Positions 22,401-28,400 of a DNA stretch of 64,000 nt are shown piece after piece. Source of the DNA: Mytilisepta virgata (Eukaryota > Mollusca > Bivalvia > Mytilida > Mytilidae); contig CM051521.1 of assembly GCA_028015205.1 (NCBI GenBank), positions 123,388,614 to 123,452,613 on the forward strand, written 5' to 3'. The position numbers and the translations under genes are program-made. Below the pieces are notes generated by a model. That model was not told the origin of the DNA. It saw nothing but the letters and a program-made list of their open reading frames with translations, and did no database searches. Position 1 is the first letter of the stretch; each line of letters starts with the position of its first letter.

Positions 22401-25400
22401 GTATGTTTATGTTGCACTTTGAAATTTTATTGTGAAATCATCAGGCAAATAAAACAGTGTTTGCTAGATTTTTTAAAGAATGTTATTATGTATAATTTGT
22501 TGATATTGTCTTGCATGTGTGTGAAGCTTCAAATACACATATATGACAAGATCAACATTTGGGAAAAAATTTCACTCAGGTCTTTGCTCGGGGTTGTCTT
22601 GAATTTACAATGATGTATAGTATTTTTCCTCATTTTTTCCTCATCATGAGGATCAGCAGGTCATTTGATTTAACTTTTGTGTTTATGTGGATATTCTTAT
22701 TGCATTTGTCTTCCATTTTACATCTACATGTACATACTAGCTTTACATCTACATGTACATAATAGCTTTACCTCCACATGTACATAATAGCTTTACATCT
22801 ACATGTACATACTAGCTTTACATCTACATGTACATAATAGCTTTACCTCCACATGTACATAATAGCTTTACCTCTACATGTACATAATAGCTTTACATCT
22901 ACATGTACATACTAGCTTTACATCTAGTTTTAAACCACCTACTGCTTATGGTCAATGATTTGAATTAGAGTGTTCTTTAGGTCTCTCTTTTAGTGATCAC
23001 TCTGTTTTGTATAAGAACTAACATATTGTACCAGTATAGCAACTGACCATGCTTAACCCTTAGCTTAAAAGAATTAACTTTATGCAACAAGTATTTAGAA
23101 TGTTTGGAATTCCTTGCTGAAGTAATGGGTTACATTGCAAATATTGATGACATTGTCAGAAAGTGCAAACTGTAAAACAATACACAGCCTGTCTTTTGGT
23201 AAAGTAGCCTTTTTTACATTATTATTTATAACACACAATACATGTATTTGGTATGCAACTGCAGATAACCGTACATTTGTATTTCATATGCATTTTTCTG
23301 CTTCATTGAGTCTTCAGATCAAAATAAGGCATAAGTTTTCTAAATTAAAAGAGAAACACAGAAAAGTTTTGTTTTCTTATACTTTTATATTTTTTTCAGT
23401 GATGCCTGTCAGCTGTTTTTCAACCATGATCCATTAAAGATAACTAGAGCTTCCAAGCAGTACATGTATGATGAACAGGGCAATGCATATCTAGACTGTA
23501 TCAACAATGTATGCCATGGTGAGTTGTAGTTGTTTAGACTATCAACAATGTATACCATGGTGAGTTGTAGTTGTTTAGATTGTATCAACGATGTACATGT
23601 ATGGCATGGTGAGTTGTAATTGTTTAAACTGTATCAACAATGTATGCCATGATGAGTTGTAGTTGTTTAGACTGTATCAACAGTGTATCCCATGGTGAGT
23701 TGTAGTTGTTTAGACTGTATCAACAGTGTATCCCATGGTGAGTTGTAGTTGTTTAGATTGTATCAACAATGTATCCCATGGTGAGTTGTAGTTGTTTAGA
23801 CTATCAACAATGTACCCCATGGTGAGTTGTAGTTGTTTAGACTGTATCAACAATGTATCCCATGGTGAGTTGTAGTTGTTTAGACTGTATAAACATTGAA
23901 TGTCATGGTGAGTTGTAGTTGTTTAAACTATCAACAATGTATGCCATGGTGAGTTGTAGTTGTTTAGACTGTATCAACAATGTATGCCATGATGAGTTGT
24001 AATTGTTTAAACTGTATCAACAATGTATGCCATGGTGAGTTGTAGTTGTTTAGACTGTATCAACAATGTATCCCATGGTGAGTTGTAGTTGTTTAGACTG
24101 TATCAACAATGTATGCCATGATGAGTTGTAATTGTTTAAACTGTATCAACAATGTATGCCATGGTGAGTTGTAGTTGTTTAGACTGTATCAACAATGTAT
24201 CCCATGGTGAGTTGTAGTTGTTTAGACTGTATCAACAATGTATGCCATGGTGAGTTGTAGTTGTTTAGACTATCAACAATGTATCCCATGGTGAGTTGTA
24301 GTTGTTTAGATTGTATCAACAATGTATCCCATGGTGAGTTGTAGTTGTTTAGACTATCAACAATGTACCCCATGGTGAGTTGTAGTTGTTTAGACTGTAT
24401 CAACAATGTATCCCATGGTGAGTTGTAGTTGTTTAGACTGTATAAACATTGAATGTCATGGTGAGTTGTAGTTGTTTAAACTATCAACAATGTATGCCAT
24501 GGTGAGTTGTAGTTGTTTAGACTGTATCAACAATGTATGCCATGATGAGTTGTAATTGTTTAAACTGTATCAACAATGTATGCCATGGTGAGTTGTAGTT
24601 GTTTAGACTGTATCAACAATGTATCCCATGGTGAGTTGTAGTTGTTTAGACTGTATCAACAATGTATGCCATGGTGAGTTGTAGTTGTTTAGACTATCAA
24701 CAATGTATCCCATGGTGAGTTGTAGTTGTTTAGACTGTATCAACAATGTATGCCATGGTGAGTTGTAGTTGTTTAGACTGTATAAACATTGAATGTCATG
24801 GTGAGTTGTAGTTGTTTAAACTATCAACAATGTATGCCATGGTGAGTTGTAGTTGTTTAGACTGTATCAACAATGTATCCCATGGTGAGTTGTAGTTGTT
24901 TAGACTGTATCAACAATGTATCCCATGGTGAGTTGTAGTTGTTTAGACTATCAACAATGTATGCCATGGTGAGTTGTAGTTGTTTAGACTGTATCAACAA
25001 TGTATCCCATGGTGAGTTGTAGTTGTTTAGACTGTATCAACAATGTATCCCATGGTGAGTTGTAGTTGTTTAGACTGTATAAACATTGAATTTCATGGTT
25101 AGTTGTAGTTGTTTAAACTATCAACAATGTATGCCATGGTGAGTTGTAGTTGTTTAGACTGTATCAGCAATATATCCCATAGTGAGTTGTAGTTGTTTAG
25201 ACTGTATCAACAATGTATCCCATGGTGAGTTGTAGTTGTTTAGACTATCAACAATGTATGCCATGGTGAGTTGTAGTTGTTTAGACTGTATCAACAATGT
25301 ATCCCATGGTGAGTTGTAGTTGTTTAGACTGTATCAACAATGTATCCCATGGTGAGTTGTAGTTGTTTAGACTGTATCAACAATGTATGCCATGGTGAGT

Positions 25401-28400
25401 TGTAGTGGTTTAGGATGTATCAACGATGTACATGTATGGCATGGTGAGTTGTAATTGTTTAGACTGTATCAACAATGTGTCCCATGGTGAGTTGTAGTTG
25501 TTTAAACTGTATCAACAATGTATGCCATGGTGAGTTGTAATTGTTTAGACTGTATCAACAATGTATGCCATGGTGAGTTATAATGGTTTTGATTGTATCA
25601 ACGATGTACATGTATGGCATGGTGAGTTGTAATTGTTTAGACTGTGTCAACAATGTATGCCATGCTGAGTTGTAGTTGTTTAGACTGTATCAACAATGTA
25701 TGCCATGGTGAGTTGTAGTTGTTTAGGCTGTATCAACAATGTATCCCATGGTGAGTTGTAGTTGTTTAGACTGTATCAACAATGTATCCCATGGTGAGTT
25801 GTAGTTGTTTAGACTATCAACAATGTATCCCATGGTGAGTTGTAGTTGTTTAGACTGTATCAACAATGTATGCCATGGTGAGTTGTAGTTGTTTAGACTA
25901 TCAACAATGTATCCCATGGTGAGTTGTAGTTGTTTAGACTGTATCAACAATGTATGCCATGGTGAGTTGTAGTTGTTTAGACTATCAACAATGTATCCCA
26001 TGGTGAGTTGTAGTTGTTTAGACTGTATCAACAATGTATGCCATGGTGAGTTGTAGTTGTTTAGACTGTATCAACAATGTATGCCATGGTGAGTTGTAGT
26101 TGTTTAGACTGTATCAACAATGTATGCCATGGTGAGTTGTAGTTGTTTAGACTGTATCAACAATGTATCCCATGGTGAGTTGTAGTTGTTTAGACTGTAT
26201 CAACAATGTATGCCATGGTGAGTTGTAGTTGTTTAGACTGTATCAACAATGTATCCCATGGTGAGTTGTAGTTGTTTAGACTGTATAAACATTGAATGTC
26301 ATGGTGAGTTGTAGTTGTTTAAACTATCAACAATGTATGCCATGGTGAGTTGTAGTTGTTTAGACTGTATCAGCAATGTATGCCATGGTGAGTTGTAGTT
26401 GTTTAGACTGTATCAACAATGTATGCCATGGTGAGTTGTAGTTGTTTAGACTGTATCAACAATGTATCCCATGGTGAGTTGTAGTTGTTTAGACTGTATC
26501 AACAATGTATGCCATGGTGAGTTGTAGTTGTTTAGACTGTATCAACAATGTATCCCATGGTGAGTTGTAGTTGTTTAGACTGTATAAACAATGTATGCCA
26601 TGGTGAGTTGTAGTTGTTTAGACTATCAACAATGTATCCCATGGTGAGTTGTAGTTGTTTAGACTGTATCAACAATGTATGCCATGGTGAGTTGTAGTTG
26701 TTTAGACTATCAACAATGTATCCCATGGTGAGTTGTAGTTGTTTAGACTATCAACAATGTATGCCATGGTGAGTTGTAGTTGTTTAGACTATCAACAATG
26801 TATCCCATGGTGAGTTGTAGTTGTTTAGACTATCAACAATGTATCCCATGGTGAGTTGTAGTTGTTTAGACTATCAACAATGTATGCCATGGTGAGTTGT
26901 AGTTGTTTAGACTGTATCAACAATGTATGCCATGGTGAGTTGTAGTTGTTTAGACTGTATCAACAATGTATCCCATGGTGAGTTGTAGTTGTTTAGACTG
27001 TATCAACAATGTATGCCATGGTGAGTTGTAGTTGTTTAGACTGTATCAACAATGTATGCCATGGTGAGTTGTAGTTGTTTAGACTGTATCAACAATGTAT
27101 GCCATGGTGAGTTGTAGTTGTTTAGACTGTATCAACAATGTATCCCATGGTGAGTTGTAGTTGTTTAGACTGTATCAACAATGTATGCCATGGTGAGTTG
27201 TAGTTGTTTAGACTATCAACAATGTATCCCATGGTGAGTTGTAGTTGTTTAGACTATCAACAATGTATCCCATGGTGAGTTGTAGTTGTTTAGACTATCA
27301 ACAATGTATCCCATGGTGAGTTGTAGTTGTTTAGACTATCAACAATGTATCCCATGGTGAGTTGTAGTTGTTTAGACTGTATCAACAATGTATGCCATGG
27401 TGAGTTGTAGTTGTTTAGACTGTATCAACAATGTATCCCATGGTGAGTTGTAGTTGTTTAGACTATCAACAATGTATACCATGGTGAGTTGTAGTTGTTT
27501 AGACTATCAACAATGTATCCCATGGTGAGTTGTAGTTCTTAGTTTCGTAATATACATCAGTTGCACAGCTACAAAGATGAAGGAAAACCTGGTTTGCTGT
27601 AAATTTGACAGCTCATTACTTGTGAGTCTTGAATTTGGATTACAGCAGCCAGATACAAAAATTAAAATATTATAAGCAAATTCCTGCATTAAATAACAAT
27701 CAAGAATTATGCAAATTGCAGAAATATGTATGTTGTTTCTCTGTCAAAGGTCCGGGTTAATTGAATGAATTGAACACTTGGTTTTTAATAATAGTTCAAA
27801 ACTTTTATTATAAATTTATTGTAAGTAAATAGAAACTTGTTCAATGAGACTTAGGTTTTCCATTTTACATGATTATAATCATTCAGATATGTTAAATTTC
27901 TAATTTCATTTTTAAAGCTCACTTTGCCCAAAGTTGTGATCACTTGGCATTCGTAGTCCACCCATCATCCGTCTGTAAACTTTTACATTTTGAAACCCCT
28001 CAGCCAAATGTACTGAAACTTTGTATGAAGCATCTATGGAAGCACCTTTATAAAGTTTGCATATTTTATCCCAGTTAGACAGCTAATATGGCGACCATGA
28101 TGAATTCTTATTTCTGATTGGTCAAAATTTAAAAAATCTTCTCTGAAATTTTATACTTTAAAAGAAAGTTCTGAATGAACTCTGAAAAAATAAAATTTTT
28201 GTATACATTTTTGTTAGCTGTTTACAATACTAATTAGTTATATCTCATTTTACACATTAGTTGGCCATTGCCATCCAGATGTGATTGAAGCTGGGTATGA
28301 ACAAATGAAGACACTGAACACAAATTCCAGATTTCTTCATGATAACCTTGTACTACTGGCCGAACGTTTGGCAACAACAATGCCAGATGGACTTAATGTT

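What the first reader, a model, noticed from the sequence alone, without database searches (positions are those of the whole stretch)
23491..27540. A 5' splice site amplified about 95 times in tandem
The minisatellite unit is the exon 2/intron 2 junction itself: ~25 exonic bases plus the GTGAGT donor and the next intronic bases. Most units keep CCATG|GTGAGT, so the transcript presents about 95 near-identical donors in 4 kb. The authentic one is the first. Use of any later donor reads GGT GAG TTG TAG and stops. Either the spliceosome strongly prefers the first copy, or the gene yields a large non-productive fraction, which could be a dosage control.
Basis: partly seen in the sequence, partly recalled or inferred. 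Interest (0 to 1): 0.9.

Follow-up and report, generated by a model that had tools for sequence, protein, structure and literature searches.

The report
Splice donor turned into a minisatellite
In a mussel-like animal, the point where one exon of a metabolic enzyme gene ends has been copied about 95 times in a row, so the raw RNA should carry some 88 intact copies of the same 'cut here' signal although only the first gives the normal protein; it is most likely tolerated repeat DNA, and a ready-made natural test of how cells choose among identical splice sites.

Summary
Window 23492-27537 is a 95-unit minisatellite. Each unit joins the last 27 bp of exon 2 to the first 16 bp of intron 2 of a phospho-lyase gene (ETNPPL/PHYKPL type) from a mytilid-like mollusc. 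Ninety units keep GT and 88 keep ATG|GTGAGT. By homology and phase the first donor is the real one; any later donor retains a TAG at 23527-23529. One genome search found the array only here.

First, the same gene has a 12-unit array of the exon 9 acceptor (40689-41358) and a 2.2-copy duplication of the exon 10 donor; 2 of 19 aminotransferase exon matches elsewhere have similar local repeats, while 0 of 28 chaperonin matches do. Second, many 43-bp units have the form AG|24 nt|GT, an in-frame microexon.

Best explanation: a minisatellite that happened to start across a splice junction and is tolerated because the exon-side copy stays intact and is used through exon definition. No RNA data were available, so preference for copy 1, leakage and dosage control are all untested. 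Repeats across exon-intron boundaries are known; this scale was not in my listings.

The parts
16411..16463 (+). exon 1 coding part, [18 protein letters not shown] (last codon split); donor GTAAGG at 16464
   Evidence: compare [18 protein letters not shown] in P0001/P0002
23400..23518 (+). exon 2, ending ...DCINNVCH(G); its last 27 bp (23492-23518) are the exonic part of array unit 1
23519..23524 (+). authentic 5' splice site ATG|GTGAGT (first of 95 copies)
   Evidence: by homology, not by cDNA
23527..23529 (+). in-frame TAG met when donor 1 is skipped
23492..27537 (+). minisatellite of 95 junction units (43/41/49 bp); 88 with intact ATG|GTGAGT, 90 with GT
27525..27530 (+). last copy of the donor (unit 95); use would give an exon of 4125 nt
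28261..28420 (+). exon 3 ([16 protein letters not shown]...), the partner of the authentic donor
40689..41358 (+). 12-unit, 55-bp minisatellite derived from the exon 9 acceptor; all 12 units keep AG (one reads AAAG), and each decoy reads ten codons then a stop
42454..42608 (+). exon 9 with the authentic acceptor, 1.1 kb downstream of its decoy array
45766..45855 (+). exon 10; its 3' end is the source of the repeat below
45814..45995 (+). 2.2-copy, 79-bp tandem duplication spanning the exon 10 donor (AGCAAG|GTAAAG, copy AGCAAG|GTAATG; TRF matches 82%); read-through of the real donor meets TAA at once
46651..46982 (+). 33-bp x 10 intronic minisatellite ending 20 bp before the exon 11 acceptor (no exon sequence in it)
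47003..47303 (+). exon 11, last coding exon

Best explanation
It is a minisatellite seeded by a tandem duplication that happened to span the exon 2/intron 2 junction of a phospho-lyase gene, then expanded to 95 units by replication slippage and unequal exchange. Because every extra copy lies 3' of the original donor, the exon-side copy stays intact. Exon 2 is defined as a 119-nt exon between its acceptor and the first donor, so productive splicing uses copy 1. A few nearby copies (exon lengths 160, 209, 295 nt and so on) may leak; such RNAs carry the TAG at 23527 and should be removed by nonsense-mediated decay. The array is otherwise tolerated, and junction repeats of the same kind occur elsewhere in this gene and genome. 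Shown here: array anatomy, gene model by homology, reading frames, a single place found in the genome, and the sister junction repeats. Inferred: use of copy 1, leakage, decay, neutrality and the expansion mechanism.
For: Array and intact donors. Frame, homology and stop. Found only at this locus. The same kind of event at two other junctions of this gene. At two of 19 Aminotran_3 exon matches in other genes: L037 (58 bp, 7.1 copies, donor side) and L035 (147 bp, 1.9 copies, acceptor side) (sides read by eye). Tandem repeats are frequent: period 20-500 covers 14.0% of 14 x 10 kb and 20.4% of the window. Recurring blocks of unit types (units 7-14 and 20-27; longest exact repeat 394 bp) suggest segmental unequal exchange. 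The donor hexamer departs from consensus about as often as the intronic bases that follow.
Against: No transcript data. SRSF1 can shift choice to the intron-proximal (downstream) of two 5' splice sites, while hnRNP A1 favours the intron-distal one (passages of PMC5585400), so preference for the first copy is not automatic. The exonic half of the unit varies more than the donor half, which mild selection on donors could also give. None of 28 chaperonin exon matches has a tandem copy, so the process is not uniform. Short-period arrays (20-100) cover 14.4% of the window but only 2.2% of the 140 kb, so this locus is denser than its comparison. Junction repeats: 3 of 10 exons here (E2-E11) against 2 of 47 control matches (Fisher P = 0.033; 0.117 without exon 2), and 3 of 13 arrays span a junction against 0.54 expected for random placement (P = 0.014; at least 2: 0.098). 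Pure chance placement is therefore not certain.
Confidence: 0.7

Rival explanations
1. Dosage control: the array competes for U1 snRNP and diverts a large, copy-number-dependent fraction of transcripts into HGEL-stop isoforms, setting enzyme level.
For: 88 donors as strong as the real one (itself included), the later ones all leading to a stop; three further intact copies lie within exon lengths of about 300 nt (160, 209, 295 nt). The exon 9 decoy acceptors and the second exon 10 donor also end in stops. The donor half varies less than the exonic half.
Against: The donor hexamer is hardly more constant than the intronic bases after it. Similar repeats in two other genes look like by-products. 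Stops on reading into an intron are expected by chance. No expression data.
Confidence: 0.12
2. The 43-bp units act as 24-nt in-frame microexons (AG|ACTGTATCAACAATGTATGCCATG|GT), so some mRNAs encode extra DCINNVCH peptides.
For: 58 of 94 intervals have TTTAG exactly 24 nt before the next donor position, 54 of them with GT intact; one inserted unit keeps the whole frame open.
Against: Only 19 nt separates neighbouring units, 24-nt exons are hard to define (recalled), 22 intervals give 22 nt and shift the frame, and none of 120 listed homologues carries two INNV motifs.
Confidence: 0.03
3. Assembly artefact: the true locus has few copies, and the array was inflated or mis-joined.
For: No reads were available; copy number in tandem arrays is error-prone.
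Against: 27 unit types in a non-periodic order, longest exact repeat only 394 bp, array of about 4 kb, no N in the window, contig of 130 Mb; a single place found. The sequencing technology is not known to me.
Confidence: 0.06
4. Splicing-unrelated role: the array's donors recruit U1 snRNP to suppress premature polyadenylation in the intron, or act as a DNA or chromatin element.
For: High density of donor-like sites; U1 protection of introns is established in other animals (recalled).
Against: No test here; other arrays in the same gene are not junction-derived.
Confidence: 0.08

Closest known systems
Internal tandem repeats at exon-intron boundaries of human segmental-duplication genes (De Grassi and Ciccarelli 2009, PMC2812944; authors recalled, passages seen)
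   Same: Minisatellite-type repeats at exon-intron boundaries, a source of alternative splice patterns and novel introns.
   Different: Those average 30-bp units repeated 4 times; here 95 units, 88 with an intact donor, in a mollusc gene that also has an acceptor array. No new intron is shown here.
Intron gain by tandem duplication (Rogers model; potato RdRp case, PMC4974935, passages; Zhuo et al. 2007 on introns from tandem arrays, not held, seen only as a cited title)
   Same: A tandem duplication crosses a splice junction and multiplies splice signals; in the potato case it covers the end of an intron and the start of an exon.
   Different: The intron position is unchanged here; copies are decoys inside an existing intron, and the 19 nt between neighbouring pseudo-exons seems too short for new introns.
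Intronic VNTR that steers splicing, TERT intron 6 (PMC3948165, passages)
   Same: A high-copy intronic minisatellite (38 bp, 18-38 repeats) affecting functional against non-functional mRNA.
   Different: That one works by RNA:RNA pairing and lies more than 1 kb from exons; here the unit is a copy of the splice site itself. One local fold of exon 2 to unit 5 is not unusual (z = -0.35).
Competition between adjacent 5' splice sites (DOK7 intron 4, PMC5585400, passages)
   Same: Neighbouring donors of one exon compete; the choice decides between full-length and frame-shifted product.
   Different: Two donors there, about 88 near-identical ones here.

Membership tests
Minisatellite | tandem head-to-tail units of about 10-100 bp with variant units | tested here: met
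   period 43, 94.9 copies, 27 unit types
Tandem repeat spanning an exon-intron boundary | unit contains exonic and intronic sequence of a real junction | tested here: met
   27 exonic + 16 intronic bp; 20 of 95 units identical to the junction; exon border by homology, no cDNA
Tandem repeat spanning an exon-intron boundary | copy number varies between individuals or paralogues | not testable with these tools
   single assembly; a single place found
Intron gain by tandem duplication | a new, spliced intron arises between duplicates | tested here: inconclusive
   only 19 nt between pseudo-exons; no cDNA
Poison splicing / AS-NMD control | alternative site introduces a premature stop upstream of later exon junctions | tested here: met
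   TAG 23527-23529, nine exon junctions downstream in the model
Poison splicing / AS-NMD control | regulated, measurable use of the unproductive site | not testable with these tools
   no RNA data
ETNPPL/PHYKPL class III PLP phospho-lyase (host gene) | similarity over most of the protein to a named family member | tested here: met
   6tor_A, ethanolamine-phosphate phospho-lyase, E = 4.3e-166, query residues 2-431 of 475; Mytilus californianus P0003 78% identity over 95%. Which of the two activities it has was not tested

The most novel reading that the evidence does not exclude
The gene is a naturally built splice-site titration device: expanding copies of its own donor (and, downstream, of its own acceptor) set what fraction of pre-mRNA becomes unproductive, so that heritable repeat number tunes enzyme output. 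More widely, splice junctions in this mollusc lineage are recurrent seeds of minisatellites.
Probability: 0.12. Interest if true: 0.85.

Novelty: new variant of a known kind. Interest (0 to 1): 0.58.

Why it matters
Splice-site choice among identical sites has mostly been studied with two or a few engineered copies (recalled). Here nature offers about 88 intact copies of one donor in a single intron, many next to small sequence variants that could help RNA reads tell which was used. It would allow a direct test of exon-length limits, proximity rules and nonsense-mediated decay. The sister acceptor array, and the junction repeats at two exons of other genes, suggest that tandem repeats sometimes sample splice junctions in this genome, a possible route to alternative splicing and intron change.

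Tried and rejected
Rfam scan of the window at gathering threshold: one weak tRNA match far from the array (7405-7501). RNA fold of exon 2 to unit 5: not more stable than shuffles (z = -0.35, 37 of 100 shuffles fold as well), so masking of decoys by structure is not supported. NCBIfam: the 25 shown of 69 families are all below their cut-offs. Microexon and artefact readings: see rivals.

Enrichment of junction repeats. Controls were 19 of the 20 Aminotran_3 matches (the window's own left out; 2 positive; matches to paralogous exons in other regions not counted) and 28 of the 55 Cpn60_TCP1 matches (0 tandem copies; one palindrome hit not counted). For the 28, about 400 bp of flank was read in most cases (one had 70 bp on one side); for the window gene the whole 64 kb was searched, and the exon 9 array, over 1 kb away, would have been missed at 400 bp. 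So the Fisher value of 0.033 flatters this gene. The exon 11 flank hit holds only intronic repeat and was not counted; exon 1 was not in that comparison. The 13 arrays in the random-placement test were picked by me, overlapping rows merged. PF00171 and PF00270 never ran. Donor scores use a human-like matrix from memory; the exon 1 donor, mis-set by one base, scores 3.48, and the exon 7 donor (GTACTC) scores only -0.22, its place resting on homology. Names such as AGXT2-like and GABA-transaminase-like for the exons in L037 and L035 are my recall, from no call.

Papers: ten answered searches (two searches returned none) showed in their listings no report of a splice donor amplified tens of times. 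I saw listings and, for six papers, passages; PMC4039745 was looked at and not used. Most subscription papers are not held.
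Full report
What is there. The window is part of a 1.03-Gb genome in 109 contigs, on a contig of 130 Mb. The gene around the finding was rebuilt exon by exon: exon 1 16411-16463, then 23400-23518, 28261-28420, 29122-29196, 29542-29641, 30213-30421, 33566-33660, 40011-40135, 42454-42608, 45766-45855 and 47003-47303. All ten introns begin with GT and end with AG, and the exons give one open frame of 493 residues. The exon 7 donor is weak and rests on homology. The best solved relative is ethanolamine-phosphate phospho-lyase 6tor_A (human, recalled), E = 4.3e-166. 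The best database relatives are two unnamed 79-80% hits and a Mytilus californianus protein at 78%, named 5-phosphohydroxy-L-lysine phospho-lyase-like. So the host is probably a mytilid-like mollusc; the species is unknown.

The array. TRF reports 23492-27537, period 43, 94.9 copies. My parse finds 95 units with intervals of 43 (64), 41 (27) and 49 (3) bp. The unit is 27 bp of exon 2 and 16 bp of intron 2. Twenty-seven unit types occur; two are commonest with 20 units each, and one of these is identical to the authentic junction over all 43 bp. GT survives in 90, GTGAGT in 89 and ATG|GTGAGT in 88 of 95. In a recalled human-like weight matrix the first donor scores best of the gene's ten donors (6.34; next 5.29); 88 array sites reach it, and 4 sites in the remaining 26,853 bp of the gene do. 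A whole-genome search with array sequence returned 37 matches, all in this array.

Consequences in RNA. The first donor joins exon 3 in phase and gives [14 protein letters not shown]; 57 of the 120 listed homologues hold exactly one [11 protein letters not shown], 116 hold INNV, none holds it twice. Exon lengths for successive intact donors would be 119, 160, 209, 295, 338, 381 and so on, up to 4125 nt. I think this is an accident of the duplication end point, since neighbouring pseudo-exons are 19 nt apart and 22 intervals give a frame-shifting 22 nt.

It is not alone. Comparing exons 2-11 with the window shows a 12-unit, 55-bp array at 40689-41358 that copies the exon 9 acceptor and first ten codons; all 12 keep AG, and each decoy reads ten codons and then a stop. 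The real exon 9 lies 1.1 kb downstream. The exon 10 donor is duplicated 2.2 times (45814-45995), and reading past the true donor meets TAA at once. In other genes, 2 of 19 Aminotran_3 exon matches have local tandem copies: a donor-side 58-bp unit in L037 (7.1 copies) and an acceptor-side 147-bp unit in L035 (1.9 copies) (sides read by eye). Of 28 Cpn60_TCP1 exon matches examined, out of 55 listed, none has a tandem copy. Tandem arrays of period 20-500 cover 14.0% of 140 kb fetched around aminotransferase genes and 20.4% of the window; for period 20-100 the figures are 2.2% and 14.4%, so this locus is unusually dense in short units. Thirteen arrays in this gene would be expected to span a junction 0.54 times; three do (P = 0.014 including the finding itself; at least two: P = 0.098). 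Control exons were mostly searched over shorter flanks, so enrichment in this gene is only suggestive.

Mechanism. A single tandem duplication across the junction, perhaps at the shared TAG of CATATCTAG and GTTCTTAG (inference from the sequence), leaves the exon-side copy intact because extra copies fall inside the intron. After that, expansion is free. Blocks of unit types recur (units 7-14 and 20-27; longest exact repeat 394 bp), as unequal exchange or slippage would give. Departures from consensus are 6 of 570 cells at +1..+6, 13 of 1045 at +7..+17 and 77 of 1330 at -14..-1 (31 of 1235 without -6): the donors vary like the intronic bases after them and less than the exonic half; the cells are not independent, so no selection is shown or excluded. 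I infer that exon definition confines splicing to copy 1, with some leakage to the next few copies and decay of those RNAs. Against this, SRSF1 can favour the downstream of two competing donors, while hnRNP A1 favours the upstream one (passages of PMC5585400), which is why RNA counts are needed.

Known and new. Repeats at exon-intron boundaries that give alternative splicing are described in human duplicated genes, on average 30-bp units repeated 4 times (passages of PMC2812944), and a junction-crossing tandem duplication made an intron in potato (passages of PMC4974935). An intronic VNTR steers TERT splicing by RNA pairing (passages of PMC3948165). The listings of my ten answered paper searches showed no case of a splice donor amplified to tens of copies. 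I rate it a new variant of a known kind: ordinary in likely origin, extreme in degree, and useful as a natural experiment. On checking, I lowered confidence in the best explanation from 0.72 to 0.70, and raised that of an artefact from 0.05 to 0.06, because of the more constant donor half, the denser short repeats at this locus and the limits of the genome search.

Noticed in passing
40689-41358: 12-unit minisatellite made of the exon 9 acceptor of the same gene; each decoy acceptor leads to a stop after ten codons.
   Followed up: yes
45814-45995: 2.2-copy tandem duplication spanning the exon 10 donor of the same gene.
   Followed up: yes
L037 4753-5159: 58-bp x 7.1 array copying the donor end of an aminotransferase exon (minus strand; AGXT2-like by recall): apparently a second, independent 5' splice-site minisatellite in this genome.
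   Followed up: partly
L035 5684-5967: 147-bp x 1.9 duplication (99%) of what looks like the acceptor side of an aminotransferase exon (minus strand; GABA-transaminase-like by recall).
   Followed up: partly
32119-33317: 41-bp x 30 minisatellite in intron 6 with no match to exons 2-11 of the gene.
   Followed up: no
20682-20814: Perfect 66-bp x 2 duplication inside a 147-codon open frame, perhaps transposon-derived (guess, no search).
   Followed up: no
41364-41464: Perfect 27-bp inverted repeat (arms 41364-41390 and 41438-41464) just after the acceptor array, possibly part of an insertion that separated it from exon 9.
   Followed up: partly
G000 C48:945278-951871 and C17:2791889-2797778: Chaperonin exon matches with equal or nearly equal scores on two contigs: a recent duplication or a retained second haplotype in the assembly.
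   Followed up: no
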